Source of the DNA: Arthonia radiata
Taxonomy: Eukaryota > Ascomycota > Arthoniomycetes > Arthoniales > Arthoniaceae
Assembly: GCA_002989075.1 (NCBI GenBank)
Contig: PSQN01000006.1
Coordinates: 1,178,001-1,242,000 of the forward strand
Reading direction: 5' to 3'
Length of the DNA stretch: 64,000 nucleotides
Shown here: positions 321-44,435 of the stretch, piece after piece
Numbering within the stretch: the stretch's first letter is position 1
How the letters are laid out: each line of letters opens with the position of its first letter
Notes under the pieces: generated by a model
The model's database searches: none
What the model was told of the DNA's origin: nothing
What the model saw: the letters and a program-made list of their open reading frames with translations, nothing else
Made by a program: the position numbers and the translations under genes

Positions 321-496
321 GGCGCCCACAACTACCGACTAGTCATAAACCCGACTAATCCTGCGTCCGCCTTTTAGCCTATTTTACTACTAATACTTAA
401 ATATACTAACCGTATATACAATAATTTCTATTATTTCTAGGTAAATGTAGCTATAGCTCTTTAATATTAATAAAGCCTAGCTTTAGTAGTAAAATA
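321..496 (+). repeat. Left terminal inverted repeat of element X
   Basis: Pairs with 41984-42158. The outer 98 bp match except for a handful of positions, nearly all C/T or G/A differences, with the left copy the more AT-rich. The inner part is looser and ends in a shared block around AATAAAGC.TAGCTTTAGTAG (469-489). Confidence 0.8.
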
Positions 497-766
497 GAGT
501 AGCTAGCGGTACGCTGTTGTTAGTAAGCTATATAAGCGCCTATTAAACTACCTAATATATAAGATTATAGTATAAACGTAGCTAAATTATAGTATACTTA
601 TACTACTTACTTTAGTAAATAACGCTGTTATAATTATTAATTATATATATTATATATATTATTATATTTTACCTTAGAAATAATAATATTAATTATTTTA
701 AAGTTAAGATTATTAATATATATAATACTAATTATTTAAATAAATATATTTTAAAGTAGCTTCTTA
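497..766. other. Element X body, left fragment
   Basis: AT-rich, RIP-mutated sequence with no readable frame. It ends with the TSD TCTTA (762-766) of the solo LTR that follows. Nothing else is recognisable. Confidence 0.5.
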
Positions 767-976
767 TATAACGCTAGTCGCTGGAAGAACAGAACTAAGG
801 CTAACGTACCTTATATGCTTATCGACCTTAATAGTAAGTATTTTGTATACTAGAGACTAAAAGATAGAAGAAGTAAAATAAATTATAAAAAGTAAGAAGG
901 GCTTAATTAAGTAGATAGAAGGTAAAGTATATTACTTAAATATAGTTAAAAAACTTGTATTTAAAATGTTAAGTTA

Positions 977-1172
977 TATAATGCATAAACGTTCCGATAG
1001 CGAATTAGAACGGAATATTGCCTATTTGGGAAGGCTGCAATTCTGGAAGGATATCTTTCCTCTAGTAGACGCATTCCTTTCTAGTCTCCTTAATAATTAG
1101 CTTAAATACTAGTAAGACCTATTTAGGTCCTTTTTACTACCTAACTGCTCTCTACCCTACACTTAAATTACA
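977..1172 (+). repeat. Gypsy-3 5' LTR
   Basis: 196 bp, the same length as its partner at 14710-14905 and alignable without gaps by eye. The pair differ mostly by C/T and G/A. Preceded by the TSD AGTTA. Confidence 0.85.
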
Positions 1173-3004
1173 TCCTAATTATTCTAAACCTACGAGAGGG
1201 GCGGCCGGCAGTTAGATACCTTATTAACGTTACTTAGAGGTTAACTCGGTATAATTAAGTATAGCTAAGACTCTATATACACGTTAAAATAAATAATATT
1301 AAAATTAATTGATGGCCGGTGCTAACAAGTACTATGTTCGAAGAGAACGAGTAAGGAATTAAGCACGCAACGATAGTTACTTTATATCCGCCGTATAAGT
1401 AGAATACAGAGCGTAGCAAAATATAGCTAACGTCGAAGAAGACTAAAACCCTTATATAGAATCTAGCGACGACAATAAGTAAGAAGGCTTATAAGCCGGC
1501 AAACAGACGCTAAGTAAATTGTAAACTAAGAAGAACGATAGTCTAAATTAAAACAATAACAACAATAAAGGGGCCTACTAAGGCTTTAACCGTAAAGAAT
1601 CCCTTTTTAGCGCCTTTTTAAGCGTTAAGGTACGAAAGCTGAGACAAGAACTACTAGCATAGCAGTAGCAGTACACTATTAAGAAGCTTAAGCTTAAAAA
1701 GCAAATGCTTGAAGTTAAGCTTTAGTCTGTTTGTAATTTAAAGGCTGATAGTAAGCGGCTATAGAGCAATTTAAGCCTTTAAAGCTAAATTAACGAGCTT
1801 CTTAAGAAAGAGGCGTCTAAGCTTAAGAGAGCTATAAGCTCTATAGACACTCGATAGACTTAAATCATTAAAAAAAGATTTTAAATAGCTAATATATCGA
1901 ACTCCGACAACGTTTATATTATTATTTAGTACGTTTAAAGACTCTTTAGAGACCTAGTAGATAGATAGCAAACTTATACCAAAGAGAATAAAAAAAAGAC
2001 GTCGCTTTACGTATAAGCGTACTTTAAAGAATAGATAATAGAATATATTGTCGACTTAGCTATAGCTACTACAGCTAACGTAGAAAAGTTCTTTATATTA
2101 ACGTAGAGTTTAACGTAGAAGCTCGAGGACTTTCTAAGCTTTTTATAGAACAAAGAAACTAAGTTGCTAGATAGCAAGATACCGGACCTAAATTAGGCCG
2201 CATTTTACTATACGCGCTTATCTTTATAAATTAAGGCGAAGCTAATTAAGTAAGGTCTTTTAGAAAACCTACTTAAAGATATAAACAAGCTTCTAAAGAA
2301 AGTTTATTAATATATAAATATTGATCGTAGTGTATCGTAGAACGCCCGCAATACTAATATAAACTAAGATCGCTCTAATAGCGGATTAAATACAAACTAT
2401 AGCGGTTATAACGCTAGAGCATTCTTATAGAGGTCGGACCGCGGACGAGACAGTTTATACCGAGAACGAGGCAACTTGCTAGTCCAATAAAGAAACAATA
2501 GCTCTGCTGTATAGAGGCAATTAGAGTCGATATATAGTAAAACAAATATTACCTGCTTTATATACAATTAGAAAGGGTATTATACTACTAAATGTACTAC
2601 GCTCTAAACTAGTATTAATTTAACGTTAGTTAGACGGAGAAACGATAGACCCCGAGAGTAAGCTTCGCGTCTCTAAAGCTTAAGGCTGTTAATTAACAAC
2701 AAGAATAAATTAAAGTCTCGGTACAGCTAAATAGGTCGCCGCAAGAGATTCTTATGCTAATAGATTCTAGTACAGAGATTAACCTTATTAATTATTATAT
2801 TGTGCTTAAAAGAGAATAGCAAAAATTCTATAGAGTAAAGCTTCTGTATATTAAGTTCCTTAATAAAAATAAGCTATAGCTCTACAGCGCTTATAATATA
2901 AATATAACTATAAGAAATATATATAAAGAGGAACGGTATTATCAACTCTACCTATATTTAGCTAACTTTATAGGATACAGCCTCGTCTTAGGATATCTAT
3001 AGCT

Positions 3005-3499
3005 TGTTAAAGGAGGGTGCAGGGAAGAAGAAGGATACTACTACAAAGAGTAGAAAGACGAGACCAGCTTGAGACTAGTACAATACTCAGGCTTGTTACA
3101 GGTACAATACTTAGTAACAAAGAGAAGCTGTTGTTGTGTTGTCTGTCTTGTTAGCTAGAATCCTCTAGAGGGATCCTAGCTTATATATCTAAGTCTAGCG
3201 GCCCGTACAGGACTTACTAGATATCTGTTCTTTTGATAGGGGCCAGATAACCTGTAACTTACCGCATAAGACGGTAATTCCGTCTATCTAAAACTGTTAG
3301 TTTCTAAGTCTATTCCGTGTTGTCTTAGACTACGGGCCAGTTGTCTAGGGCGGGTCGTACAATGCTCCTTTTTGTCCTAGGCCCGACCCTTTAGGTAAAA
3401 GGCTTGTTCTATTCTAGGCCGAGACAGCTGGTAGGACCTGTCCAATACTCCGGGCCCCTGGGGGTTCCGGCTAACCAGCTAGTTGGTTAATTTCCAATA
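3005..3499 (-). mobile_element. Solo Copia LTR inside Gypsy-3
   Basis: About 495 bp, matching the 507-509 bp LTRs of Copia-1 and Copia-2, and flanked by TSD TAGCT (3000-3004, 3500-3504). It sits between the protease and RT regions of Gypsy-3. It keeps many more C/G bases and CpA/TpG steps than the other copies (for example around 3421-3480), so it is probably one of the youngest insertions in the block. Confidence 0.85.
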
Positions 3500-6400
3500 T
3501 AGCTTAAGCAAGTTGAGCTTCGACTTAGCTGAGCAATAAGAACAATCGCTTGGAAAAACCTTTCTACGCTCAAAGAACGGATAGCAAGAGCTAAATCTGT
3601 TAAGATTGTTAATAAAGACGTAATTTTAGTATATTTATAAAGAGGCGAACAGTACTATTCTACGATTCTATAGATAAGAGTAGATAAACGTTATAAGTAT
3701 TAAATAGCGGTCTTATTAGACGTTAGTTCGCCGCTAAACTAAACTCTAGATAGCGAGCCTAAGAAAGTAGAGAAGCGAGATAAGCTTTCTTCTTAGTACG
3801 CTAAATATAAAAATATCTTTTCTAAAGAACTATCGAGTAAGCTTACGCCGCTTAATAAGTATACTTATAAGATTAAACTTAAGGATAGCATAGAACCTCT
3901 ATATAAGCTAATCTACCCTATATCGTAGAATAAGCTAAAGACGCTCTGAAAGTATCTAAATACTATAATTAAAAAAGAATAGATACAACCCTCTATTAGT
4001 TCGGCGGGTGCTCTAGTTCTGTTTATACTTAAGGCAGATAGATTGTTGAAACTATATATTAACTACTACGATTTAAACAATATAACTATAAAGAATCGCT
4101 ATGCATTGCCGCTAGTCTCTAAGATTCTTAATCGCCTGTAAGGCTCGAAAGTATTTACAAAGCTTAATCTTTATAATGTCTATTACCGTATCTATATTTA
4201 TAAAGGAGATAAGTAAAAGACGGCGTTTTGTATCCGATATAGGCACTATAAATATCTAATAATACCTTTTAGACTAGTAAACGCCTCTACTACGTTCTAG
4301 GTATATATCTATAAAGCTATAGGCAATCTTATTGATACCGTGTATATCGTTTATATAGACAATATCTTAATTTTCTTTAAAGATAAGGAAAGCTATAAAA
4401 GCTATATTAAAGAAGTCCTGCGAAGGCTCTATAAATAGAGTTTATTTATAAAGCTGTCTAAGTGTTAATTTTATATTACTAAGGTTTCTTTCCTAGGGTT
4501 CACCGTAAGAGTCGATAATATCGAAATAGACCTAAAAAGGGTACAGACTATAACTAAATAGTTAGTTTCTACTATCGTAAAGTAGATTCTATCCTTTCTA
4601 AAATTTATAAACTTCTATCAGCAATTTATCTACGGATTTGGCTGCATCGTAGTACCAATAAACGTACTAACAAAAGACATTAAGTTTATCTAGAGCAAAG
4701 CTCAATAAAAAGCTTTTAAAGCGTTAAAGCAAGTCTTTATAAATATACTAGTACTAACATACTTTGACTTAGTACTATCGATCGTTTTAATAACTAACGC
4801 ATTAGACTTTATAATAGTAGGCATTCTACTTTAGCTAAGAGGAGATAGCCGATTACTATTGCTATTAAATATTAACTTAGACTTGTTTATACTAAATATA
4901 GCGGATACCGCCCGGACTAGTACTAATAACAAGGCAGATATATATCTATATCCGGTAGCGTTCTTTTTAAAGAAATTTGTAGACGCTAAGCTAAGATATA
5001 ATACCTATAACAAAGAGCTTATAGTAATATAGACTAGCTTTAAGCACTAGTACTATTACCTTATTAGTATATAGTATTTAGTAAAGATTGTAATAGACTA
5101 CAATAATCTATAATATTTTATAATAATAAAAGTATTGTCTCGCCGATAGGCGCGCTGGATAGAAGACCTGTTAGTATTTAACTTTAAAATACTATACCGT
5201 ACGAGTAGCAAGAACCTAGCAGACGTACTATCGCACCGTTTAGATTATAAGAATTTACATAGAGTAAAGAAAGATAGCGCTAACAAGATATTACCGAGCC
5301 TATAGTAGAAGCTTAGAAGAGGTGCTGCTTTGCCTAGTACTGTAAAAGAGCCCTTTAGCCTAAAAGAAGGTATAATTGCTGTCTTAATTATATTACTTAA
5401 AAATTAGTTTAAACACTATTAGCGGTTTAGCTACTAATTTAAAACTCTAAACGCGACTGTAGCTTAAATCGAGAATAAATTAGAGTTAAATACAGACCTT
5501 ATATAGGACGCTTAGAAGCGAAAAACGTGTCTGTCTTTCTCTACTAATATAGAGTCTTTTTTAGTAGCTCTCGTATTACGAGTTAAGGTAGTTGTAGCTA
5601 CCGCTCTCAAAATAGCTTACAATAATACTTCTTAGGATCTTATAACTTTAATCCTTAAAGTTTAGTAGAGAGACGCTTTTATAAAGCAGAAAGTATTAGA
5701 GTTAAAATTATTGGCTGAGACTAAAGGTCAGTAGAGTAATAAAACGGTAATAGATCGCTATTAAGCTGGTACAAGAAAGCGCCGTACAAGTCGAATCGAC
5801 TTAGATACCCTAATAGGGCCCAACTTAAACTTTAAGTCTCTAAAGTACGTAGAATAGTTAGTCGACAGCTATAAATTGTTGCGTTAAGATAGTAAAATTT
5901 AGATACTAAAATACTCTATGTTAAAGCTTAAAATTATAAGCAGAAATTATAATAATAAGCTTGCTAGTTACTTTAAGGTTAAAAAGACCCTTAAAATTCT
6001 AAGACATAAATATACGTAAAAAAAAGATAGCAACGTATATTAAGAACTTTGTTGCTAAATATAATATATACTAACAAACAGCCGTAAAGAGGTATAAGCT
6101 ATACAGCGAAATAGTAGCGATATCGGTCTCAATTAGCTTCTTTAAGGACCTATCTTTAAACTTTATTGTTAAACTACTAATAGTTCTTTTAAAGAACAGA
6201 GACACTGTTAATTTAATTCTTATAGTCGTAAAACGCTTCTCTAAGTTTATAATCTATATTTTAGTTAGTAAAACTATAGATGCTATAGAGCTAATAGAAG
6301 TGCTTTACAAACACTAAACAAAAACGTTAAGATTCTCAAGAAACCTTTTGTCTAACAGAGAATTTATGTTTACTAGCTTATATTAGAGCACCTTTTACTA

Positions 6401-8403
6401 GTATTTAACTGTAAAGCGAAGGTTAAGTACAGCATTTTACTCTTAAACTGATAACTAAACCAAGCGCTAGAACTAAAAGCTTAAAAACTACCTATATATC
6501 TATATCTCTTAGAATTAAGATAATTAGTATAAGTATCTAAAAGAAGCTACTTTTACGTATAATTTAAAAGTTTATTTATTAACAAAAATTTTGCTAATTA
6601 AATGTATGTTTAGTTACGTTATAGACGTACTAAACGGCGCGCTGCCGCTAGATTGGTACTACACCGTAGTTAAGCTAAACAACCTTTCTGTCGGTAAGAA
6701 CACCTTCTATTAAGAAGAAAGGTAGTCTAAACTAAAACATTCTATAGCAGTTAAGTATATAGAAGAACGCCTTCTCTGCTAACAAGAAATAAAGCAGCAG
6801 CTAGAAAAAGCTTAGCGTCTATAGATAGAATAGTATAATACTAAGTATACACTAAAATACTATGTAGTAGATAACTTAGTGCTGCTATTGTTAAAGAATC
6901 TTAAGATAAAGAGGTTAATAAAGAAGCTCGACGATCGAAGCTTAGAACTATTTAGAATCCTTAAGAAAGTAGGTAAACAAGCTTACTAGCTAGTACTACT
7001 AGACTCCTACTATATCTACTCTGTCTTCTATGTATCCTTACTAGAGCTATATCGCCGTCGGCCTGATATAAAACTGTCTGGTCCGGTCGAAGTCGATAGT
7101 AGTAAAGAATAGCTTATTAAGGCGATTTGCTTTAAGATTAAGAATAAAGACTAGTATTAAACTAAGTAGCAGAGATAGTTAGAGGCAAATAATATAATAA
7201 AGCTGCGGATATATCTTAAAGACTCTAACGTCCTTAAGAAATTTAAGAAGCGTAAAGACGCTAAGCCGAGAGACAAGCGTCTAAGATAAACTAGACAATA
7301 TAGATAAAAAAGAGCTATAAGTCTATATAATTAGTCTACGATATAACGTTAAAGAGAAGGTAAATTACTTTAAGTACAGTTTAGAACATAAAATTAGTAT
7401 AGTATTAAACTTTAAAACTATTTATATATAATTATAAAGCTTAAGCTATAAGAAAGCTAAAATAAGACTTGTATAGGAAGAAAATATAGAACTATTCCGA
7501 TAGGCCAAGAAAAACTACTTATATAGACTAAAACCCTAGTTAAACAAAAGACAGAAAACTACAAGAAGACTACCTAAACTAGCATCGAAGTTAGTACGGA
7601 TCGGCAATATAATACTACTTAATCCAGCCGCGACTATCATTAATACAGTTCTAAATCTAATTAATTAGACCTATTAAAGCTAGCTTATAAGGGGTCTTAT
7701 TTATAGACGGCTAAGGGTTATATAACCCTATATTAGAATCGAAGCTCTAGCGTAGCATCTTAATACGCTTAAAATCGTTAGTATCGGCCTACTCGACCAA
7801 CTTAGTGCCCAGACCGCGCTATTAGACCTATAGCTAAACGTAAAAGGCGCAAAGCAGAGTAAGATAGTCGTTATAGAAAGACTTTTTGTTATTTTAGACG
7901 TCCTCGCTAGAGGTTAAGAAAAAGTTAGCGCGTACAAGAAGGTTATAGATACGTTTTTATTAAGCAAAAACCTAGTATACGTTAATATAAGGTTAATTAG
8001 TATCTAAGATAAGGAAGTATTAGACTTATTATCTTATACTTATCTTCTAACCTCTTAATATTAGTACAGCGAGTATACTTAACGTACTATTCTTTAGGCT
8101 ATTTATAGGTCTAATCCTTATAATACTTAAAATTAAAGTTTGTAGAAGAACTACTATATACAGCTATATTGCTAAATAAGGTCTTTATATAACGGTAGCA
8201 TACTAAGACGTAAGCCTCTAGCTAAGGCTAAATTAATATAAATACGGCACAAAAAGCGGGATTCGAGGAGATAGACCGGCGAGACTTTATAAACGACTCG
8301 GACTTATAAGCAGTACCGCGGTAATAAGGAGAACAAACAATTTTGTTATTATTAGAGTCGTCTTTATAGACGTAATACTTTTAATAAGCTAAAATACTAA
8401 TAT

Positions 8404-8685
8404 TTAGACTAAAATAAAGCAATAAGAGATAGTAGACTTATAAGAAGTCGTAAAAGTTAAAGATACGCTATCTAGTTTAAAAGAGTATAGACTAGAAAAA
8501 GCTGCAGATAATTTAGAAATTAGTAAAGCAACCTTAGAAGCTTTCTTCTTACGAGCGTTATAAAGAAGAGCTTTAAAATTAATAGCGGCTTTAGAGTCCT
8601 TAATACTGCAAGTTAAGCGGTAAGTTAGCGCTTTAGAAGAGCTCGCTTTAGCAGCAGGTTTATTAATAGAGTTAAAATCTAACAT
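8404..8685 (-). other. 93-codon open frame in Gypsy-3 3' segment, probably chance
   Basis: A Lys/Ser/Ala-rich frame of 93 codons lies antisense to Gypsy-3 pol, between integrase and the 3' LTR. Long frames are rare here because RIP creates TAA/TAG, so it stands out, but no domain is visible. The plus-strand reading of the same bases is also rich in Leu, Lys, Glu and Ala, so the conserved strand, if any, is uncertain. I regard it as fossil sequence. Confidence 0.2.
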
Positions 8686-8991
8686 AGTAAAGATTATAAA
8701 GGCAAATTAAAGGCAATCTAACATTAAATTAGCTATAAACTTATTACTTAAAAAGAAAAGTAAAGACTTACTAAAGAAGAGAAGCTTGCAGACTAAGTAG
8801 AAGAGTATAATAATATTAAAGAAAGAAAGAGAAAGTTTAAAAGAGTAAGAGCCTTATTTTATATCTATCGTTAGATACCGATAATAAAGCTTCTGCCTAT
8901 AGATACTAATATAGAAGCAAAGAAGCCTATTTATATAGGTTATTACTACCTATAGAGGCAATTTATTGGTAAAAGTGTATATAAGAGTATT

Positions 8992-9499
8992 GTTAAAAAA
9001 GGGTGCAGGGAAGAAGAAGGATACTACTATAAAGAGTAGAAAGACAAGATTAGCTTAAGACCGGTACAATACTTAGACTTCGTACAGGTACAATACTTAG
9101 TAGCAAGGAGAAGCTGTTGTTATATTATCTGTCTTATTAGCTAAAATTCTCTAGAGAGATCTTAGCTTATATATTTAAGTTTAGCGGCTTGTATAGAACT
9201 TACTAGATATCTATTCTTTTAATAGGAGCTAGATAACCTGTAACTTACCGTATAAGATAGTAATTCTGTCTATTTAAAACTATTAGTCTCTAAGTCTATT
9301 CTATATTATCTTAGACTATAGGCCAGCTATCTAGAACGGGTCGTATAATGCTTCTTTTTGTCCTAGGGCTGGGCTACTAGGCAGGACCCTTTAGATAAAA
9401 GGCTTGTTCTATTCTAAACTAAGACAGCTAATAGAATCTATCCGATACTTTAGGCCTCTAAAGGTTCCAGCTAACCAGCTAGTTGGTTAATTTCTAATA
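8992..9499 (-). repeat. Copia-1 3' LTR
   Basis: 508 bp, with partner at 13892-14400. The purine run just inside it on the minus strand (near 9500-9515) fits a polypurine tract. Confidence 0.85.
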
Positions 9500-9544
9500 T
9501 ATTCCCTTAATTGACTAGTTGTTTTAGCCAGATTATAAGCTAAT

Positions 9545-9769
9545 TTAAGTTCTAAACGTTAGTATTTTAGCTAAGTCGATCGGTTTTGTTAAACCGTCTG
9601 CTAATTGTTTCTTTATAGAAACGTATTTAAGCTCTATTTGGCCTGTCTGAACGTTTTCTCTAACATAGTAATACTGTATATCAATATGCTTAGATTTAGC
9701 TCGGAAGGTAGGGTTTTTTGTAAGTTCTTTTGCTAAATTGCTGTCGGTAAGTAACAGTTTTACCGGCAA
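9545..9769 (-). pseudogene. Readable C-terminal fragment of Copia-1 pol (RNase H end)
   Basis: A surviving 74-codon frame contains the motif KYVSIKKQLADGLTKPI, the hallmark C-terminus of Copia polyproteins. It lies just upstream of the 3' LTR in element orientation, exactly where that end is expected. It is only a piece of a fossil polyprotein. Confidence 0.85.
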
Positions 9770-12700
9770 AACCGGGGTCTCCGGTCTAATTTAACTGGCT
9801 TGCCCGAGCAAATATATGCTTGCCTGGTGCGTTAGAGCCCGCCGAGTCTTTTTATCCGCAGACTTTTTAAAAGTACCCGCTAAAACGGTAGTAATCGAAT
9901 TTTCTTCGAAAATCCCGGACAGTTCGGTAGCAATTAATCCAATAAATAACTGTTCCTTTATAGCTTTTTTAAGGGCTATATATTTAGCCTTATAAGAGCT
10001 TAAGGCGACCGTTTTTTGTAGCTTCGAATTCTAGCTAAGGGCTCCGTTTCTGAGTAGAAAGATATAGCCGGTAGTCGATCTCCTGGTACCGAGGTTCTCC
10101 CCTCAATTTGCGTTATAATAGCCGGTTATACCGTTTATTAAGGGAAATTTATAGTATAGGCCAAGGTTAGGAGTTTTATCTAAGTAAGCCTAAAGGCTAC
10201 TTAAAACTCTCTAGTGCTTCTTACTAGGATTCAATATATACTAGGCTAGTAGATTAGTTGTAAAGGCAATATCGGGTCTTGTCTTTGTTATTAGATACAA
10301 AATCGATCCAATTTGTTGCTAATAATTAGAAATATTGGCACTGCTAGCTTAATTAGGATTCGGTGTCAATTTTGAGTCGACGGGTTGCGGTATTTTTCCG
10401 GGCATTCGGCCGTTTTCCTTCGAGTATTTGGTTAAAATTTTAGCTAAATAAGTCGACTAGTCTAGGCGAATTGTTTTTGCCGGGCGATCTCGAGTAATTT
10501 TAATTTCTAGAAACTTATTAACGTCTTCTAAGTTCTTAACTATAAGAGTCTTATTTAGTTTCTAGTAGATTCTAGAGATTATTTCGGTAGAATCGAATAT
10601 AGCTAATATATTGTCTATATAGACAATTAAAATTGCCTGCTTTTTAGTTCTTCGAATATAAACCGACTAATTGGATACTAGAGGTTTAAAACCTATGTTC
10701 CTTAGTAATTCTTAAAGATAAGCTTTCTACTATCGGTCGGTCTGTTTCAGACCGTAAAGGGCTTTCTTTATTCAATATACTTTATTAGTTCCGTTAGATA
10801 GGCCAGTTAGTTGCTCGATATAAACAATCTTATCTAACTTTACGTTAGAATAAGCTAATTTTACGTCCTATTACTTTATTTTCTAGTCTTTCTCTACTAC
10901 TAAGGCTAATATAAGCCGGTAAATAATTAGATTTACTATATTTGCAAAGGTCTCTATAAAATCGAGGTCGGATCTTTGCTGGCAGCCCTTAGCTATCCAG
11001 CGGGCTTTAAAAATCGGCTCGCTCTTTAGAGGGTACTTAACCTTTGGTATTCAGCACCCTTTTAGCGCCTTTCTACCCGGCGGCAGCTCGGTTAATATCT
11101 AGGTTTCTTAGTTAGCTAGCTCTTTAAGCTCCGACTATATTGCGTTTAGCTAAGAAGACTAATCCTTAGATACCCTTATTTCTTTTAAGTTATTAGGCTC
11201 TTTAGTAACTGCGACTAAGGCCTGTTTAGCGTATTGTTCTAGATTATTGTAGAACTCGTTAAACTAATTTTTGTCGGCGTTTTTGTATATAAAATCTATT
11301 TTCTGGGCGCAATCGATATCTACTCGGTCGAGGTCTTCGGTACTTCTATAATCTAACTCGGTAGAAAGGTTAGACTCGTCTAGAGCTCTAGTTTAGTATA
11401 GTTCTTATTTAGATTTATCCGCTAGTTATTAAGATATAGAGAGGGTATACTGTTTCTTATACAGAGAACTTCCTTTTTTATCGGGAGGTACCTCTCTATT
11501 ATCTTAAGAAATAGTGGTCGGATTTAGCTCATTTTTGAACTCGACTTTTAGTTGTTCTTCGGGCTCTTTAGAAATACTTTTGGTTAATCGATTAACTATA
11601 GATCCCTATAGGTTTCAAATAAATTTTTCTTCTTAAACATAGACGTCTCTTCCTCAGTAAACCTTCCGGCTATTAAGGTCTAAGAGCTTATATTGGTTTA
11701 ATTCGTAGTCTATTAGGATATAGATAGTTACTCTAGCGTCTAGTTTTTTTTAGTTTAGGTTCTTTAAGATAAGTAACTGAGCCCTAGATTTTAATAGTAC
11801 TAACATCCGGTTTTTTGCCGTATTTTACTTCGTACGGGGTAATAAACCCCAGTAATCCGGTATAAGGGGTCCTATTATAAATATAGATAGCTGCTTTTAA
11901 CGCTTTACCCCAATATATCTAAGGTAGTCCGGCGGTATAAAGCATTGCTCGAACTTTACTAACAATTGTTCGGTTAAAGCGTTTAGCTCGTTTATTTTGC
12001 TAAGAGGTATATAGTACAGATATTGTTAGAATAGCTTCTTTTTGTTCTAGAAGCTGTTTTATTTAGCCTTCCCGATATTCTTTTGCGTTGTCTAAGTATA
12101 GTCTTTTAAAAGGATACTCGGACTATATTTCTTTCTGAGTAATATAGATAGATAGTGCGTCGAAAACCTAATCTTTAGACTATAGTACCTTAGTAGTTAT
12201 ATACTAGGTTTTATTGTCTATAAAGCTAGTAAATAATTGACCTTTAAAAGGGGTTTGCGGTATAATTAGCCCGCAAATATCTAAGTAGACTTTTTCTAAA
12301 TAATTAGCCAATTTATCTAGAGTTTTTTAGCTAACTTTAGCCGTTACCTTTGCTTTAAAGCAAATTTAGCAATTATCTTCTAATTTGTCCGAATAATCTG
12401 TTCCTAGAGCAACCTTTTTAAGCTGTTTTAAGGCGTTTTCGCTTATATATCCTATCCGTTAATATTAAAGGTCAGTTTTTAAAGAAATAGTATAGAGAGA
12501 TTGAACTATATTAATAGTCTAAGCTTCTATTACAATTAGACCGTTAATATACTGTCTCTCGGTAGTTAGTTGTCCGGCTCAATCAACTTTTAGCTTGTTT
12601 TAGCTAAAAGTTATCTTATCTCCCCTCTTTCTAAGTTTATTAAAGCTTAGAAGGTTAATTCTAAATTTCTTAACAAACAAAACTTCGTTTAGAACAATTA

Positions 12701-13875
12701 TTTTATTCTTAAAGAACAGTTTTGCTTTGCCTGTCTATAAGGCTCGAATTAACTTTCCTCCTCTTTAACGAATAATTCGGTTAGTTAGCCGGATATCCGT
12801 TAGAAGATCAATATTCGAGTAAATATAGCTTATTAAGCTTATATCGAAGATCTAAGAATTAGTAAAGTAATTAACTCTGTTTAGTAATGCTGTAAAGCAT
12901 TCTTCTTCTTATAGATTGGAACTATATACAGAAAATATTAAAAAATCGGTGTTTTTGGAGCTTTTATTAGAATTTAGCTAGAAGTTTAGATATTTTTTCT
13001 AACAAGTTGCCGGTTTATACCCCTTTTTGTTATAAAAGGAGCATTTTTCTTAGTTTTTACTTAGAGATTTTAATTTTTCTCCGGTCCTTTACGTCGATTT
13101 ATTGTCTATTGCAGTAAATACCTTTTCTACTGGGGTACTACCGCGGATTCGGCGAGACTCGTCTATAAGTTAACTAAATAAGTCCTATAAACTTATATCG
13201 CTAGTTGTTTGCTAGTAGCTTTAGCTAATAATAGCTACCGTATGCTTATATTCGGGGGTCAGATTATAAAGGATGTAGGTAGCTACCACCTTGTTAGATA
13301 GTGCTAGTCCTTAAGTTACTAAATCGTCCGTTAATTGTCTAATTTTAGTAAGGTAAAGCTTAAGGTTTTTTACCTTACTAAGTATAGTGCTAAAGAGCTC
13401 CTTACAAATTAGAAACTCGGAACTAAAACCTTTCGATTTATATAACCTTTTTAGGCTATTCTAAAGCTCTAGAGAGTTATAAATCCCCTTTATTTAAATA
13501 AAGGAACCGTCCTCTAGAGTTAGTTAAATAAGGGCTGCTACCCTTGTCGACCGTTTCTAACGGCTAGCTTCGGTAATATCTCTAGCTAAATAGCCGGAAA
13601 AGGGGATTATAATATTACTGTAGCTCTTTTTAGTTAAAACGGCCTCTATTTAAATCGACTAAATGTTCCAATTAATCGAGCCCTTGAGTTTAGAAATCTT
13701 ATAGAAGGAGTCCATAGCCGAATATATAGTCGGAGATTTCCAGAAAAAAAAATGAAATTCTGTTCTAATAGTTAAATTTGACTAAAAATTTAGAGTCGAT
13801 TGGTAATACGATCGTTTAGAGGTGCCAATAGGTAGAATATTTCTTAAAAAGAAAATTTAAAAGGAATTGGTACTA

Positions 13876-15384: not shown

Positions 15385-15389
15385 GTACT

Positions 15390-28299: not shown

Positions 28300-28705
28300 C
28301 AATTCCTCTTCTTTTAGTTAAGTTATCTTTAACTGACCCTTGCTTTTTTACTCTTTTTAATACCGTATAAGTACAACTCGCCGCAGTCCCTTAGATTTGT
28401 TCTGTAAGTCGTTATATTTAAGATTGCTATGTTACTGTCTAGTACTAATTAAAAGTAGGTTCGTGCCTTCTTAATCGAAACCTATAGCGACAAAATGCTT
28501 TCTTGTTCTCGTTGCGCTCGTCTAAGTTAGCGTTATTTTTTAGCGTCTAGTCGTTGTATATATACAGGCTGTACTTGTATAAAGAAGCTCTATAACGTTT
28601 GTCTCTCGCTAACTAATAGTTAGTTTCTTTTCTGTTTACTTTCTATTCTCTTACTAACGCGTTAGTTAGCTAATTTTATTTGTTCTCAATATCTCTAAAC
28701 ATCTA

Positions 28706-29011
28706 ATGCTCTTTAACGCGCTAAGAAGCGTCGTACCAAAAAGAAGCAGTCGAAGGAAGAGGCGGAGGAAAAAGCTTGAGTTACTTCGAAAGAGTGGCTT
28801 TAGGAAAAATAAAAAAGTCTCGCAGCTAAAGGAGAAGGTAGACGTATTGCGTGCGTCTATCTTAGACAAATTAAATTATAATAAGCTGTTAGAGCAAGAA
28901 GAGTTGTCTGCTGCTATATTAGGTAGCAATATACTAGATGCGTCTAGCAGGCTGTCTATAGATTTTTGTAAAGATCTATTTTCTAAATTAAATAGTAGGC
29001 TTATAATATAG
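28706..29011 (+). other. 101-codon open frame antisense to Gypsy-2, 3' segment
   Basis: An ATG-started frame of 101 codons survives between the integrase region and the 3' LTR of Gypsy-2, on the strand opposite to pol. The product is very basic near the N-terminus (KRSSRRKRRRKKLELLRK) and then helical and Leu/Lys/Glu-rich, suggesting a coiled coil. It may be chance in a less-mutated stretch, an old captured sequence, or an antisense ORF of the element. No family is recognised. Confidence 0.3.
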
Positions 29012-32000: not shown

Positions 32001-34729
32001 AGTACTTGTTGTCGTATAGAATCGTTAGCGTATAGTTGTCTCTTATTTATACTTACGTGTAGTTAGCTATAAACAAGATACTGCGTTAGACTTCTCTTAT
32101 AAAATATCTAAGTATCGGAGTATAGTAGTACTAACCCGCGTAAGTTCTTTATTGTGCTTCTTATTCTTACTACTAAAAATAGCTTATAGAGTATTTATTT
32201 TGTAGAACGACTCTTGTTTAGAGTACTTATACCTAATAAAGAGGAGTTTCTTAGTTCTCTAATCTACTTTTAGGTTATATTGTTGTAACTAAGGTATACC
32301 TAGTACGGCGTAGTACTAGTTAATATTTATAATATTATAAGTAATTTCTTTCTAATAGTCTCTAATTATTATATCTATTGGTAAAGTCTCGTAGTCGACT
32401 CTTTTCTCTGTCCTTTAAAATTTAAACAGTACGTAGAGTAATTTCTTCTTTTATATTTATATTTAGTACTCCTTAACGTAGCGTATTAAGATAAAGTTGC
32501 CTATTACGCCTAAATTAATTATAATTTTAATGTTTCTGTAGTTTATTGTTGCCCGAGTATATAAATATGTTCTGTAAAAAGCTAAGCTCGTATAGAGCTA
32601 GACTTTTAAAGGGTCTAACCGTTAAACGGACCGGTACTACTGCCCTTAGAGCAGTCGGCCTAGTCTTTTTTCTGTTAATTGTATATATTTTAGAGTATTT
32701 TAAGTATTAAAACCTATTGTTAGTTAATCTGCTATAAGAATTCCTGTATAAGGTATTCTAGTACTATCTTTATTATAACGTCTAGTTTGTTATTTACGAT
32801 TCTTACCTTAATTATACAACTATTGCTAGTTAAAACCTATCGTATCTGTAGATTATATATTGTTAGTCGAAGATATTAGTACTGACTATATAATTTTAGA
32901 CCTCTAATAAGATAGTTTACTAGTTGTCGTAGACGTAAGTAAATATATCTCGGAATATTATTAATATCTCTATTAGCGCTTAACTTTCTATTGTAGAAGG
33001 CTAATTAACAAAGTCTCTATATTATTATTTTTTAATGAATTAGAGTTTGTTCTTTCTAATTAGTATTGTTCTTGAGTAAGAATTCTGTACCATTAGAATT
33101 TATATTTTTGTCTTTAAGTCGTTATCTTGTCTATAACGTGTCGTAGCTACTATCTTACTTAGCCTCTACGGTCTGTTCTTCCTTAAATTTTTCTTAGGTT
33201 TTTGAGTAAGGTGACCTAGATCTTCTTCGAATAAGGTCTAGTTCTTGTATCGAACCTTGTTTTAAAGATATCGGTTTCCTTGGCTATCATTCTAACCCTA
33301 ATTTATCGGATTTGTAGGTCGTATAATCGTTATCGTAGTACGTAGTTTAGAATAGTGTTTTATATAGTATAACGGTATCTCGTATCTACTGCCTTGAGAT
33401 AGTATAGTTAATGTTGTTCTAGTTCTATAGACTTTATTATTCCTGTTTTATTTATCGTTCCTTTATTTCTTCCTATAACTCAATATCTGTGTCTCAGTTT
33501 TTATATAAGTTAAATAAGTTCTACTCGTTATATTTCTTGTTAAAAGAAACCTAGTAAGTATCTTTCTAGTTACAGAAAGCGCTCCAGTAAATATCCCTTT
33601 GCTTCTTAGTTAGTTCAGTAATGTACTTATATTAGTTCTAAATAGTCTTCTATAAGAGACTTAATTCTTAAAGGGGACAATCCTCGGTTGAGTTTATATA
33701 TTAGTGGTCGAAGAAGGCTGCTAGTAATTCTATTGCCTTATTGCAACCGTTGTCCTCTTGTGTCTAAATAGTTATATTAAACTATTGTCGTAGAAAATAG
33801 AGTTTCTAAGATTGATTATTGTGTCTGTTTCTACCGGTACTGTTAAACTATTGTTTTTTGAAACGGTATTCTTTAACTTAATGCCCTAGTTTTCTGTAAT
33901 ATAAGTATAGCTTATTCTTTATTCTATATTCTTGTTCCTGATTGTTTAGTTTTTCTTGAGACTTTATAAAATCTAACTCTATTAGATTGCCTCGGTCTTA
34001 TTAAGAGTTTGCTTGATTCTTTGTTCTATAGAATTTATTAGTAGAGTTACTCTTCTTTTCTATTTATCTTTTAAAGTTGCTGTCGTTAATTTTCTTTACT
34101 CGTTGTATAAAGTTATCGAGATTATTAAACTTCTCTCTATAAATATAGATTATTTCTTTAATATAATTTTTAAGTTCTTTGTAGAAAGTCTCAATAAGAA
34201 GTTTCTTATTCTATCCTGTTTAATTAGCATACTGTATAAATTCGGCGGCGTATCTGCTCGTTGGTCCTATTTACTTAAGGTTCCGAAGCTTTCTAGTAGC
34301 GACGCGTCTAGCGTCGGTTTGCCTAAAGATTTTATAAAGCTTCTTCTAAAAGAAAACGAAGCTAGCAAAGAACTTGTCGGTATTCTCGCGTCTGCTCTTT
34401 ATTAAGGTAAATAAGAAATCGTCGAAATAATACTTAATCTACTTATAAGTATCTCTATTTATACAAAAGGTAGCGAATAGAACTATAGTAGTGTTATTCA
34501 GAAACTAGTCTTTATAAGTTTTAAAGTATACGGCTAAGCGTATTAAGAATAAAGTAACTTTAAAACGTTTATTTAAGAAGCTTTTTCTTATCTTAGTATT
34601 AACGTTCGATATCTTACTCGTACTAGCTATCCTATTGGCTAACCTATCTATAGCGTCGCAGCTATTGGGTACCGAAGTAGTAGATATAATTAATCTGCTT
34701 TCTCTACTTTTATAGCGAGTCTATTAAAG

Positions 34730-35201
34730 TATAACGCCGGTCGCTAAGAGAACCGAACTAAGGCTTACTTACCTTGTGTACTTATTAACCTTAGTGGTAG
34801 TTGTCTTGTATACTAGAGACTAAAAGGTAGGAGAGGCGAGACAGATTATAAAAGATAAGAAGGCTTAACTAAAGTAAATAGAAGGTAAAGTACGTTACTT
34901 AAATATAATTAAGAAACTTATATTCAGATATTAAGTTAATAGACTAAAGTTTAGCTTAAGATCGGCCATTAGTTTAGCTATATAGTCTAAGGTACAAGAG
35001 AGGTTCTCTTAGAGCCGCTGTAGCCGCTAGTATTCTTATAGATAACCGCGGCTTTCTAGTCCGACGTACCCGCTTTAGCTGCTGTTGGCTAAAGAGGTTT
35101 TATCGGCTAAAGGTGCGCTAGTACCTGTTAGCGTTCTAGCGAGTAGTAGGTATTAATGCTCGGGGATTCGCTTAGCCGTTCTGGGCTTAGCGTTCGTAAT
35201 A
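34730..35201 (-). repeat. Gypsy-2 5' LTR
   Basis: 472 bp. The same LTR type makes up the solo LTR at 767-15170. Confidence 0.85.
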
Positions 35202-37256
35202 AGATAAGATTTACGTTCTATAAAACTTAATTCAATATATTATTAGTAACTTCTACGATAATCTAACGAAAGGATATAAAGGCATCGATAACATTATTAA
35301 AAAAATTACGAGAATCTACTATATTCTAAGAATCCGGCACTATATTGAGAATTATATTTAAAAATACGATGTATACGTAAGAACTAAGTATTTAAGATAC
35401 TTACTATATAGTAAACTACAGTTACTAAAAATATTTAAAAGACTATAGTATATAGTCTTACTAGACTTTATTACTAAGTTACTAATCTCTAAGAATCTAC
35501 TTATAGAAGTAGCTTACGATGCTATCCTAGTTATATGCGATAAACTAACAAAGTATATATATTTTGTATTTTATAAGGAAGCTAGCAATTTAGAAAATTT
35601 AGTATATATATTTCTTTAGATTATTCTAGCTAACTATAGACAACCGTAAAGAATTGTCTTTAATAGAGATTAAAAATTTGTCTCGCGATTTTAGACATCT
35701 CTAATACAATAACTGGAAACAAAATAGAAAATATTTACTTTATTTTATCTGTAAACAGACGAATAGACAGAACAAATAAATTAAATACTAAAATAGTATC
35801 TCTGAGCATATATTAATTATTAGTAAGACGATTAGATATAATTACTATTAGTAGCGCAAGCTACGTATAATAATATAAAGAACGATATAATAAAAATAAC
35901 TCTGTTCTATATCTTATATAGCTATTACCCTCTTTAGAGCAGACAACTATAGAATACTACAGAAAATAAAATAGCTACGCAAATAGCTACGAGCATAAAA
36001 ACTCTGTACCAGCAGTTAAAGTCTAACAGCGAGTTTATTAACAAACAAACTAAAAAATAGTATAATAAGTTAAAAACTATCTTAAATATAAGTATAAAAG
36101 AAGGAAAAAGAGCTTACTTACTTATAAGAAACTTAAAAACTATTAAACTAAGTAAAAAACTTAACTATACTAAGACAAAACTGTTTAAAATCTTATAGCA
36201 ATTAAGACCTGTAATATTTAAACTTAAACTTTTAAAGATAATAAGAATATATTCTGTATTCTACGTAGTACTGTTAAAACTAGCCTACTTCTAAGAAGTA
36301 GAACAATTTAACCTAGAAATCCTTTCGAACAACTAAGAATATAAGTATAAGATTAAAATAATTCAAGCCTATAAACAATACCGAAGCAAACAATAGTACC
36401 TTATAAAATAGAAAGGATACTCTAAATATAAAAACTAATAGAAACCGGAATAAAACCTAACTAACTATAAAAATACTATTTAACGATATTAGAACTAAAA
36501 TATTAATTAATCGTAGTAGCACTAATACTCTAATTTACTATTTAGTACGTTCCGCTAGTACCTAGGTTACCTATAAACGAACCAGCTTACTATATTAGTA
36601 ACCTACTATTTAACTCTAAATATAGATTATTACGAAAATCTATACTTAAGCTATTTAGTATATTTATAATATTACTACTAAATATAGCCGCTAGCTATTC
36701 TTTCTCGAACAATATATTATTCTAATCTGTTTTATTCTGTATCTAGATACGTAATCTTTTAAGTTTCTTCTTTAAATTAATAACCGCCGCTTTAATAGCT
36801 TTATACTGTCTTTTCGCTATACAAACAACTTTCTTTTCTTCTATTAAACGCTTACGCTGCCTTTAAAGGGCGTTTAATACTTATAAGTACTAAGAACGGA
36901 TACTCTAAGCTAAAGAAGTTAAAACTAGTTTAAAAATAAACATTAAATAGAAACTAACTATCTTCTAACGATAAATAAACGTTATACAACTCTTTATCGC
37001 AAATATACACAAAATATAATACCTTTCTAGACTTTAGAACATACTTCTTGTCTAAATAAGAGCAACAGAAATATAGAGGCATCTCTTGATTATAAACTTT
37101 AGTAAGAACAGTATTAATCTTAAGCGCTTTATTAGTATTAAGGACCTTCTTAATTTTAAATATAACGACTTATAGAATTAAATCTGTTACTAAGTAACAA
37201 CAAGGTTTTAATATTTTTAGGGCCGTTATAAACGACTAGCCTTAAAGAGGAGACCT

Positions 37257-37707
37257 TGTATTACAGTTTTACTATATTTAGCTAGTATAAGGCTAAGCAT
37301 AGCTAGCCTTATTAAAGTATTATATAGAATACCTAATAACTCCAATATAGCGACGTTAGCGATATCGCTATATTGCAATAGAATTCTAATAGCGCGATAG
37401 AGAAGCTATCGTAACTATTAAATATAAAGAAACCTACTTATATACCTTAAACTATATAGCTAAACTAATAGCTAATTTTAAAATAAACTTTAGTCTACTA
37501 ACTTAATATTTAAATATAAGTTTCTTAACTATATTTAAGTAACGTACTTTATCTTCTATCTACTTAGTTAAGCTTCTCTTACTCTTTATAATTTGTCTCA
37601 CTTCTTCTATCTTTTAGTCTCTAGCATACAAGATACTTACTACTAAGGTCGATAAGTACACAAGGTAAGTAAGCCTTAGTTCGGTTCTCTTAGCGACCGG
37701 CGTTACA
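37257..37707 (+). repeat. Gypsy-1 3' LTR
   Basis: 451 bp, partner of 15390-15838, followed directly by the right TSD copy GTACT. Confidence 0.85.
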
Positions 37708-37712
37708 GTACT

Positions 37713-40700
37713 CTAGTAAATTTAAAAGAATATAAATATTAAACTTTACTACTTACTTAAAGAGTATATTACTAATTTTAAGTACTATATTACTAATATA
37801 TAGAAGATCTTTAGTAATAATAATATAATAAACTATAGCTACTAGTTTACTTATTATTATCTCTATTAAAAGAAGTATTATCTTATAAAGATATAAATAT
37901 TTTTAATTTATAGTAAATTAGTTTAAAAGACGTTACTTACTGTATATTCTAGTATAGTAGTTACCCTTCTTACTCTCATTATACTAACTATACTTAAGAC
38001 TCTAACTATATTTAGTCTCTTAATAGATATATAAAGCTTAAAAAGTTTAGCTTTTAAGTTTATATAAATATTAATATTTATACTTACTCTATTTTTTCTT
38101 TTACTTTATTAGTATCTTTATATATATATATATAGTACTTTATACTTTAATAATATATTAAAACGCTTTTAGATCTTTAATACTCTCTATAAATTATTTA
38201 TACTAACTATAATATAGAGATATAGCTAGTTACTCTTTACTATAGAAAAATTTAGATAAAAGTCTATAGCTCTTTATTATAGTTCTACTACTTTTATAGT
38301 ATAAGTAAAAAGAACTAAAAGATTAAAGTTTAGTAGCGTCTACTTAGATAAAGATAACTATATACTTTTACTAATTTATTTTAATTCTATAAGAATAATA
38401 GTAAATTTAATAAAGCTAGAGAAATAGATAAAATTATACTTAAGATAATTTATATACTAATTATTTATAATACTATTAATATCTTTATTACTAGCTATAA
38501 CTTAAAGCTAATTTAAGCTTAAAAGAATTAATTTTATATACTTTTAAAGTAGCTAATTAAAAACTACTTATAGCTACTAGCTAGTATAAAGAACTTTATA
38601 GTTAATATTAATTTTATAATACTTAATAGCTTTTTATATAGCGTTTTAAAATATAATAAAAATAAATACTTATCTTTAGTAACGTATATAAAGTACTAAG
38701 AGCTTCTTGTTAATACTAACTATCTTAAGTAGCTAAAATAGAAGATAGCGTTTAACTTTAATTACTATATATACTAATAGACTTATTTTTAGCTATACTA
38801 GAATTTATAAGTATATCTTAATACTAGTAATAATCTTAAAGAAACTATAGCGCTATTCTATTAGAATAGATAACGTCTAGTAAAGCTAATTCTATAGCTA
38901 ATTAAAGACTATTAAGATAAGCTATAGAATATAGTTAGTAAAAATAAATTATAAGATAGTAATAGTAAGATAGGTATAAAGAAGAAGCTAAATAATCTAG
39001 CGTATATTAAAGGCTTTTTAGCGTATAATAGAATTAATTTAAGTATTAAAATAGAATAGATATATACTACTACTTAATAAGACTAATACTATTTATAAGT
39101 CTTATAAGATAGTATACTTTAATAATATAGTATTTAGCTATAGAAAGAAATTCTATAACATAACTTATATAAAAGGATAGTACTAATTTTACTAAACTAA
39201 TTTATTAAAATAATAATATATTTAGTATCTAAAGTAGTATAATAGTAATAGTCTATTAATAGTAGTACTATCTATAATATAGAGTAAAGTAGCTTAGCTA
39301 TATACTAAATTCTAACTCTACTTAAGCTATAGTTATTACTATACTAACTATTATTATATTATATCTAAAAGAGTTAGTTTTAGCTTTATACTAATATTCT
39401 TAGTAAGTATACTAATAGTAAGGCTAGTAGACTTTAATAACGTATATAGAAGAATTTAACTATATTAGCGGCTTTAAGCTAGAACTTTACTATTCTTTAT
39501 TTTTATATAATAAAGAAGAAAAAAGAAATAGAAAATATAATTAACTTTTATATATATAGTACTTTTATAAATATCTTACTAATAATAGAGCTTATATATT
39601 TTTAACTATAGCTCGTTAGAATAACCTATACTCTAGTAATTTATATATTTTTTATAGTACTATTATATAGGGTCGCTTCTACCCTAGTTATATATAGAAG
39701 ATACCTCTAGTACTAGCTATTCTAGTAGATACTATTATTCTAGAGCTTAAGAATATATTTTAAAAGTAATTAAGTTAATAGACTACGCTAGCGCTAGTTA
39801 AGTCTATATTAAATTTAGCCGCAAGGCTAGTATAGCCTTCTAAACTAGCTAAAGTTAAAGAATGTTACTTAAAGAGTAACTAAAATAAGCGTATAAAGAA
39901 TCCTAAAAGTCCTAACTATAAGAGCTATCTTAAATTTAACTAAATAGTTAGTGAGTATATAAAAAATACTAATAAAAGTACTCTTATTAAAGCTTATATT
40001 TAGTTCTATATTATTATATTTAGTAAAAAGAAGCTATTTAGTTATACTATATAGATTAGTAGCAATACTACCTATAATACTAATATAGAATAGTCTAATG
40101 CTACTTATAATAATCTTATTCTACTATATATCTTTATCTTTAAGAAGAGCTACTATAGTCTAAAAGGCTAGTTATAGATTATTAATTATTTTTACCTTTA
40201 TCTTATATATAGTTTTATAAAGATAAAAAATAAGTTTATAAGTAGATCTAGTTTCTTTAGTATAAGTTACTATTATCTTAAAGATACTAGCGTAACGTTA
40301 AGTAAGTAGGTAAAGTACTTTATAAAGAAAAAGAAGAATAATATTTATATTATAATCTAAAGATAATAGCTAAAGCTAAAAAAGCCTAAAAAATATAGTA
40401 AAGAGTTATTTATACTATTATCTCTAATAGCGTTTATATCTTTATCTACTAAAAAGGAGATTAAAAAGGAAATTAAGAAGAAAAAGAAGAAAAAGAAGAA
40501 ATTTATTAAGCTAGAGCTAAAGCTATTTTATAACCTCTAGTATTATTTATACTAGAACGTCTATAAATTAAGTAGTAAAAAACTAATAGAAGAAGAATAA
40601 GAAAAAGATAGACGTTACTATACTACTAGAGACTTCTAAAACTATATATAGTAAATATATACTATTGCCGCTAAGTAACTTAAATAAGTAAGTAAGGTTA

Positions 40701-41983
40701 TAAATAAGAGTTAAAAGTCTTAAAGATAGGAATAAAAATAAAGCTAGTATAGCTAAAGATATAAAAAAGAATCTTAAGACTTAAAATAAGATTACTAGTA
40801 GTAGTAAAGATAATAATAATAATAATAGCTATCTAATATACTAAATAAGCTGTTAATACTATTATTAGCTCTATGTTTAAGAAATATAGTAGTCTTATAT
40901 ATACTAAAAGTAAAGCTAAAGATAGTAAAGTTAAAGAAGCTATAAGTAGAGAAGCTATAGAGACTATAGTATACTTAAATATCTAAAAAGTAAAATTTTT
41001 TTTTAATATTCTTTAGTCAAAAGATTATATAATCTTACTATATTAATTATTTTCTAGAAATTAGTCTGTTTATAGTTTTTCTTTCTAAAAATTGTACTCT
41101 AAAGATATAGTAGTGTCTTATAAGTTCTATAGCATAGTTGCTTTTATAATATTATTATTATAGCAAGATAGAGACTATACTAGTAATATTATACTAAGAT
41201 AAGTATCTTATACTTAAAAAATAGAATAATTAGAGTTAGTAATCTAAGTAAGCTTAAAAGAAGAGAGTAGTAAACTAAAATATATACTAATATTAGTAAG
41301 ATACCTATAAAATTTACTACTAAGTCTATTTCTTATGTAAATAATATTACTAAGCTTATTAAGACTTACTCTCTATTTATATATATATTAAAGTACTGTC
41401 TTTATATAAATATAATAGATTTAAATATATTAAAGTTAAGAGTTAATATTATATCTTACTATATCTTTTTTAATAGTAAAAATAGTATAGTTTCTTACTC
41501 TTTAATAGGCTTAATAGCTATAATTATCTTTTTAAACCTTAAGTATAATATGAAAGCTACTTACAAAGAAAATAGTAAGATATAAGAGCTTATAAAAATA
41601 AAAATCGTTACTAATAACTTTTAACCTATATTAACTATAAGAGCTTATTAAAACCTATTAAACATTATTACTATAGTGTTAAAAATGTCTTAAAAATAGA
41701 GCTAAACCTACTTTATAATAAATTACTACTATTTAAGCTAAGTTTTAAAGTCTAAGTTAGTTTGACTAAAAGATATATTATTAGTATACTTCTATCCTTT
41801 CTTCTTCTTTCTTTCTTTCTTTTTATTAAATAGAGTAATTTTATACGTATAAATATATATAACTATTTTAAAATTAAGTAAGGCGATTTAAATATACTAA
41901 AGGTCTCTTTAATCAATAGTAGAGCTAGTACTATCTAGCCTGCTAGTAATTAAAGAAGCCTACTATCTATACTAATAATATTT
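37713..41983. other. Element X body, main fragment (4.3 kb)
   Basis: The largest uninterrupted part of element X. It is the most AT-rich and TpA-rich stretch of the window, with CpA/TpG nearly absent and no ORF above 60 codons. A basic, Lys-rich plus-strand composition near 40380-40520 and 40600-40900 hints at coding ancestry on the plus strand, but no transposase motif could be read. No LTR remnant lies within it. Confidence 0.5.
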
Positions 41984-42158
41984 TCCTACTAAAGCTAAGC
42001 TTTATTAACGTTATATATAATTTTAAATATAATAGTAACTTAACTAATACTATTTTATTATATACGCGGTTAGTATATCCGGGTTTTGGTGGTAGAATAG
42101 GCTAAAAGGCGGACGCGGGATTAGTCGGGGTTATAACCAGTCGGTAGTTGTGGGCGCC
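41984..42158 (-). repeat. Right terminal inverted repeat of element X
   Basis: Reverse complement of 321-496. The outer 100 bp keep more G+C than the left copy (for example 42063-42130), so RIP has been lighter on this side, next to the genes. Confidence 0.8.
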
Positions 42159-44400: not shown

Positions 44401-44435
44401 GCCTCTGGACCACGCTTTCAAGCTCGAAATACTTG

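What the first reader, a model, noticed from the sequence alone, without database searches (positions are those of the whole stretch)
321..42158. A 42-kb AT-rich block grown by insertions into one TIR element
The edges of the RIP-mutated block coincide exactly with an inverted repeat of about 175 bp, so the block is not a diffuse heterochromatic patch. It appears to be one 5.1-kb element that later collected at least seven LTR insertions. This gives a direct model of how an AT isochore can grow at one point between ordinary genes.
Basis: seen in the sequence. Interest (0 to 1): 0.75.

Follow-up and report, generated by a model that had tools for sequence, protein, structure and literature searches.

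The report
Nested retrotransposons inside one fungal transposon
A 42-kb AT-rich stretch between ordinary fungal genes can be read as one old DNA transposon with eight later retrotransposon insertions stacked inside it, a clear example of a process already described in other fungi.

Summary
The AT-rich block is bounded by an inverted repeat (318-424 / 42161-42055: 84% identical, 98% in purine/pyrimidine code). A candidate 7-bp target-site duplication (CCTTTCT/CCTTTCC) lies just outside. Inside, eight LTR insertions are delimited by 5-bp duplications (7 of 8 exact, 1 of 8 with a G/A difference): five with both LTRs, three solo LTRs, nested up to four layers deep. Families: one Ty1/copia, two Ty3/gypsy, one with a decayed chromodomain.

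LTR pairs differ by 248 transitions and 6 transversions in 2,129 sites, so RIP explains nearly all decay. RIP depth falls at 8 of 8 parent-to-child steps (permutation p about 0.001), agreeing with the nesting order.

Amendments: the GC drop begins some 45-100 bp inside the ends; the block also lost DNA (three solo LTRs); the base element's superfamily is unknown. No empty site or second copy could be tested, because no genome is held. Nested, GC-poor clusters with a base element and verified duplications are in print (PMC4522978), so this is a well-resolved new member of a known kind.

The parts
318..42161 (.). Whole block: base TIR element T with everything nested in it; T's own sequence is 318-766, 15176-15384 and 37713-42161, 5,107 bp without second target-site copies
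   Evidence: TIR match; layers sum to 41,799 of 41,844 bp
318..424 (+). Left terminal inverted repeat of T (weaker similarity continues to about 496)
42055..42161 (-). Right terminal inverted repeat of T
311..317 (.). Candidate 7-bp target-site duplication of T, CCTTTCT
   Evidence: chance 0.00065 at the fixed boundary for length 7, 0.032 if both boundaries may slide by up to 4 bp; other lengths not counted
42162..42168 (.). Right copy of the candidate duplication, CCTTTCC
767..15170 (.). F0: solo LTR of the F family (470 bp own: 767-976 and 14911-15170), split by X; TSD TCTTA both sides
977..14905 (+). X: Ty3/gypsy-type LTR element inside F0, LTRs 977-1172 and 14710-14905 (196 bp), TSD AGTTA both sides; holds A0 and A1
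3005..3499 (.). A0: solo LTR of the A family inside X, TSD TAGCT both sides
8991..14400 (-). A1: Ty1/copia element inside X, coding on the minus strand, TSD AGTAT both sides
15390..37707 (+). F1: Ty3/gypsy element inside T, LTRs 15390-15838 and 37259-37707 (449 bp), TSD GTACT both sides; plus-strand coding shown for the SH3 region, otherwise inferred from F2
17483..22894 (+). A2: Ty1/copia element inside F1, inverted relative to A1 (domains scanned in A1 only), TSD AAAAC both sides
27314..35201 (-). F2: second F element, inverted, inside F1; LTRs 27314-27600 plus 28115-28299 (split by A4) and 34730-35201 (472 bp each); TSD AGATA both sides
27601..28109 (.). A4: solo LTR of the A family inside one LTR of F2, TSD GGGCC / GAGCC
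23341..23628 (.). 288-bp insert in F1, absent at the same point of 2 of 2 homologous copies in the window; GC 0.41, weakly RIP-mutated; no clear duplication

Best explanation
A TIR (class II) transposon of about 5.1 kb, T, landed between two ordinary genes. It then served as base for at least eight LTR-retrotransposon insertions: F0 and F1 into T; X into F0; F2 and A2 into F1; A0 and A1 into X; A4 into an LTR of F2. Each layer was mutated by repeat-induced point mutation (RIP) after it arrived, so deeper layers carry more RIP. Three insertions (F0, A0, A4) were later reduced to solo LTRs, by LTR-LTR recombination as usual for such remnants (general knowledge). Shown: boundaries, duplications, nesting, transition-only decay and the RIP gradient. 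Inferred: that T moved as one unit, and that insertions accumulate here because the flanking genes do not tolerate them and perhaps because the F family's integrase carried a chromodomain that seeks silenced chromatin.
For: Repeat map. 5-bp duplications at 8 of 8 LTR insertions, 7 of 8 exact. LTR pairs of the five elements with both LTRs: 248 transitions, 6 transversions, 2,129 sites. GC and CpA/TpG ratio ordered parent to child at 8 of 8 steps, permutation p about 0.001. Within one family, the host F1 holds the mutated letter at 453 of 718 transition differences to the nested F2 in the two long aligned stretches. TIR far above controls and a candidate outer duplication. Copia and gypsy domains.
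Against: T's right 4.4 kb has no Pfam match at E up to 0.1 in six frames and one at E 0.15 when E up to 10 is listed; no transposase is shown. The outer duplication has one mismatch and a 3.2% chance if boundaries may slide. T's right part is taken as one element only because nothing else in the window matches it. Some short F1 stretches show no excess of mutation over F2 (26:32, 27:30, 60:58). No second copy or empty site could be looked for.
Confidence: 0.85

Rival explanations
1. The two outer inverted repeats belong to two different copies of one TIR family (or two decayed MITEs) that happen to flank a retrotransposon cluster.
For: Similarity is strong for only about 107 bp and then weak; no other body sequence is shared between the ends; the outer duplication is imperfect.
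Against: The only inverted partner found for either end is the other end, so neither is a complete small element. The candidate duplication sits exactly where purine/pyrimidine similarity ends on both sides. The remaining sequence sums to one element of 5.1 kb.
Confidence: 0.1
2. The AT-rich block is a diffuse heterochromatic or centromere-like patch whose ends only happen to lie near a transposon end.
For: The block is strongly AT-rich throughout, and RIP extends over nearly all layers.
Against: 41,799 of 41,844 bp fall in nine delimited elements and one short insert; the RIP signal ends at or within about 100 bp of both TIR ends and the flanks are normal.
Confidence: 0.03
3. The block is a cargo-bearing giant element (Starship-like) moved as a whole, and the retrotransposons are passengers.
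For: Large size and a candidate duplication outside terminal repeats.
Against: No tyrosine-recombinase domain found in six frames of T's right 4.4 kb (T's left 0.66 kb was not scanned); interior accounted for by retrotransposons. RIP could have erased a captain gene.
Confidence: 0.02

Closest known systems
Nested TE clusters with a base element in Mycosphaerella graminicola / Zymoseptoria tritici (PMC4522978; abstract and passages, the section on nested blocks)
   Same: Base element with later LTR insertions, target-site duplications checked, lower GC than flanks, sizes 7.5-63 kb; eight clusters over 20 kb have a DNA transposon or unclassified element as base.
   Different: For those eight the section reports verified duplications of the primary LTR insertion, not of the base; here a candidate duplication of the base is given. 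Eight LTR insertions here; the paper states 2 to 7 different elements per cluster. Organism here unknown.
AT-rich isochore 'fissures' of Pyrenophora teres (PMC5915480; abstract and passages)
   Same: AT-rich TE blocks wedged between syntenic gene blocks, variable in length and presence, growing by TE insertion and expansion.
   Different: Described at genome scale; no layer-by-layer dissection in the passages seen.
AT-isochores of Leptosphaeria maculans (PMC3493481, passages; the genome paper PMC3105345 is not held)
   Same: Large TE-rich AT blocks in a RIP-affected genome.
   Different: Not compared by sequence. The passage places avirulence genes in those blocks; no such gene was looked for here.

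Membership tests
Class II TIR DNA transposon (element T) | Terminal inverted repeats at both ends | tested here: met
   107 bp, 84% identity; best 100 bp 98% purine/pyrimidine identity against at most 77% in 292 controls
Class II TIR DNA transposon (element T) | Target-site duplication | tested here: inconclusive
   CCTTTCT/CCTTTCC, 6 of 7, one C/T difference; chance 0.00065 fixed, 0.032 sliding
Class II TIR DNA transposon (element T) | Transposase gene | tested here: inconclusive
   No Pfam match at E up to 0.1, one at E 0.15 in T's right 4.4 kb. Three-base periodicity Z 9.3 at 39513-40412, but tandem repeats inflate it: Z 3.6 and 1.8 in the two parts without them
Class II TIR DNA transposon (element T) | Several copies in the genome | not testable with these tools
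   No genome held; no exact copy of one terminal 20-mer in viral or prokaryotic contigs, which says little for a fungus
Ty3/gypsy chromovirus (F family) | Pol order RT-RNase H-integrase with Tf2-1-type SH3 | tested here: met
   F2 minus strand, one frame: RVT_1, RT_RNaseH, Integrase_H2C2, SH3_Tf2-1 in this order, above curated cut-offs
Ty3/gypsy chromovirus (F family) | Chromodomain at the integrase C-terminus | tested here: inconclusive
   After the SH3 domain in F2 (E 0.0012, 19.2 bits) and F1 (E 0.19, 12.1 bits), both below the cut-off of 25.1 (E 0.02 in the longer F2 frame)
Ty1/copia (A family) | Copia-type gag and RVT_2 reverse transcriptase | tested here: met
   Retrotran_gag_2 7.7e-12, RVT_2 9e-35 in A1; A2 not scanned
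Ty3/gypsy (X) | RVT_1 reverse transcriptase and RNase H between LTRs | tested here: met
   RVT_1 1.2e-17, RT_RNaseH_2 4.6e-10, SH3_Tf2-1 4e-09; no integrase zinc finger, integrase core or chromodomain match in the parts scanned
Repeat-induced point mutation | C-to-T transitions biased to CpA, high TpA, end at unique DNA | tested here: met
   248 transitions to 6 transversions in LTR pairs; TpA/ApT 1.6-2.5 in T and the eight LTR layers, 1.21 in the 288-bp insert; flanks normal. At still-differing sites CpA leads but is not exclusive: 67 CpA, 56 CpT, 39 CpC, 21 CpG, 65 with a differing neighbour
Starship giant element | Tyrosine-recombinase captain near one end | tested here: not met
   No such domain in six frames of T's right 4.4 kb; T's left 0.66 kb not scanned; RIP decay limits the test
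MITE pair | Each TIR paired with a near inverted partner | tested here: not met
   The only inverted partner found for either end is the other end

The most novel reading that the evidence does not exclude
The block is a self-reinforcing trap with a readable stratigraphy. RIP of the first element makes silenced chromatin, which draws in chromodomain-bearing integrases (F0 and F1 into T, F2 into F1), whose own RIP enlarges the target. RIP depth then counts sexual cycles since each arrival while transversions count elapsed time, so one locus would record the rate of sex over time.
Probability: 0.2. Interest if true: 0.6.

Novelty: new member of a known kind. Interest (0 to 1): 0.3.

Why it matters
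It is an unusually complete case: almost every base of a 42-kb AT-rich block is assigned to a layer, and two orderings obtained in different ways (nesting, RIP depth) agree. It shows that such a block can start from one DNA transposon between genes, grow from within and also lose DNA through solo-LTR formation. That helps annotation of AT-isochores and suggests transitions and transversions as two separate clocks. The general process is already described.

Tried and rejected
Own-genome search for more TIR copies and an empty site: not possible, no genome held. One terminal 20-mer, exact, in viral and prokaryotic contigs: 0 and 0. A 19-base TIR stretch and its complement in papers: 0. Rfam at gathering thresholds and ARAGORN: nothing in the window. 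Transposase in T's right part: no match at E up to 0.1, one at E 0.15. Coding strand of T by the purine-N-pyrimidine pattern: the measure cannot tell strands apart. The strong three-base periodicity in T (Z 9.3) mostly goes when tandem repeats are left out (Z 3.6 and 1.8), so I no longer claim that T was clearly coding.

My first reading of the F repeats as TIR elements with TA duplications was rejected: they pair as LTRs with 5-bp duplications. Terminal letters are TG..CA in 3 of 8 insertions (F1, A1, A2) and have one end reading TA in 5 of 8 (F0, F2, X, A0, A4), which I read as RIP of TG or CA. A duplication in place after insertion was rejected for the doubled part of F1: three well-aligned segments differ by 16 transversions in 1,380 sites, LTR pairs by 6 in 2,129 (p 0.002); a longer stretch with gaps gave 23 in 1,011.

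Corrected on checking: an earlier LTR count (7 transversions in 2,131 sites) included bases outside F2's LTR; one search gives 6 in 2,129.
Full report
Observation. The first 42 kb of the window are AT-rich (GC 0.19-0.39 per kb) and change at about 42.1 kb to GC 0.50-0.60. No genome is held for the window, so the sequence evidence below comes from the window itself. In the right flank, 10 frames were scanned; those with matches above curated cut-offs are a phosphotransferase, a tyrosinase, a sugar transporter, a 706-aa glycogen-phosphorylase frame and a flavin monooxygenase. The left flank holds an open frame of 34 codons with its stop at 105-107 (its resemblance to a transporter end is by eye only). 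The block thus lies between genes and, as far as 317 bp on the left show, cuts none. That the organism is a filamentous fungus is my inference from RIP and gene content.

Ends. 318-424 and 42161-42055 align as inverted copies without gaps, 84% identical, 15 transitions and 2 transversions; similarity is weaker to about 496. In purine/pyrimidine code, which RIP cannot change, the best 100 bp are 98% identical; 292 control pairs reach at most 77%. Immediately outside are CCTTTCT (311-317) and CCTTTCC (42162-42168). A match that good at a fixed boundary occurs in 0.065% of random pairs, or 3.2% if both boundaries may slide by 4 bp; other duplication lengths were not counted. I therefore call it a candidate.

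Interior. Self-comparison and boundary reading resolve eight LTR insertions with 5-bp duplications: F0 TCTTA, F1 GTACT, F2 AGATA, X AGTTA, A0 TAGCT, A1 AGTAT, A2 AAAAC, A4 GGGCC/GAGCC. The nesting is T(F0(X(A0, A1)), F1(A2, F2(A4))). F2 lies inverted in F1, which produces the 3-kb inverted repeats. F0, A0 and A4 are solo LTRs. Layers plus a 288-bp insert sum to 41,799 of 41,844 bp; T's own share is 5,107 bp.

Families. A1 has copia gag and RVT_2 on the minus strand. X has RVT_1, RNase H and SH3_Tf2-1 on the plus strand. F2 has RVT_1, RNase H, integrase zinc finger, SH3_Tf2-1 and a weak chromodomain on the minus strand; its plus strand gave one match below cut-off. The chromodomain trace recurs at the matching place in F1, below the curated cut-off in both. 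T's right part has no convincing match. Its three-base periodicity (Z 9.3 at 39513-40412) shrinks to Z 3.6 and 1.8 when tandem repeats are left out. Whether T coded, and its superfamily, stay open.

RIP and order. LTR pairs of the five elements with both LTRs differ by 248 transitions and 6 transversions in 2,129 sites. At sites that still differ, contexts are 67 CpA, 56 CpT, 39 CpC, 21 CpG and 65 with a differing neighbour; CpA leads but does not dominate, as expected if most CpA sites are already mutated in both copies (inference). The ratio (CpA+TpG)/(ApC+GpT) is T 0.10, F0 0.26, F1 0.35, X 0.39, F2 0.41, A1 0.46, A2 0.46, A4 0.49, A0 0.64. It rises at 8 of 8 parent-to-child steps, and so does GC (permutation p 0.0012 and 0.0011; the 288-bp insert, 0.86, was left out of the permutation). 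Families differ in original composition, which weakens this. Within one family, F1 carries the mutated letter at 453 of 718 transition differences to the nested F2 in the two longest aligned stretches (sites are not fully independent). Shorter F1 stretches against F2 are mixed: 63:43 and 46:24 in the same direction, 26:32, 27:30 and 60:58 without excess, the 26:32 and 60:58 stretches overlapping in part. GC drops some 45-100 bp inside the TIR ends while CpA/TpG are scarce closer to them; the flanks look normal.

Mechanism. Best supported: one TIR insertion, then retrotransposon insertions accepted inside it, each RIP-mutated in turn, some reduced to solo LTRs. Targeting by the F chromodomain is an inference. 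A passage of PMC3605345 says that residues forming the H3K9me cage of HP1 are conserved in group I chromovirus chromodomains; whether F has them was not tested. A passage of PMC9970103 says that 58.4% of the TE copies it traced remain in low-GC isochores and 20.5% moved into them.

Prior work. PMC4522978 (abstract, passages and one whole section) reports 78 putative nested clusters of 7.5-63 kb with base elements, duplications verified in 35 of 49 with an LTR base, one of 47 kb with a GC dip, and eight over 20 kb with DNA-transposon or unclassified bases. PMC5915480 (abstract and passages) describes AT-rich fissures growing by TE insertion. The finding is a very clean member of this known kind. 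Whether RIP depth and transversions have been paired as clocks on one nested stack was not searched for.

Noticed in passing
16458-25359: F1 holds about 1.7 kb of its interior twice (16458-23730 with inserts, and 23790-25359), joined by a 58-bp inverted piece of the same family (23731-23788). Three segments differ by 16 transversions in 1,380 sites, more than LTR pairs (p 0.002), so F1 looks like a mosaic of two F copies, perhaps from template switching.
   Followed up: partly
23341-23628: A 288-bp insert in F1, absent from 2 of 2 homologous places in the window, GC 0.41 and weakly RIP-mutated, with a short tandem repeat; no clear duplication.
   Followed up: partly
14993-15170, 15390-15560, 37259-37426, 28115-28299, 35017-35201: F-family LTRs share about 280 bp but differ in the rest: F1's pair and F2's pair show no match there, and F0 matches neither at the thresholds used, so three LTR variants seem to coexist.
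   Followed up: no
7053-8985: X carries about 2 kb after its SH3 domain and before the 3' LTR with raised three-base periodicity (Z up to 6.1); no Pfam match there up to 8450, the part scanned.
   Followed up: no
44426-44866: A 180-bp tandem repeat (2.5 copies, 73% matches) in the normal-GC right flank.
   Followed up: no
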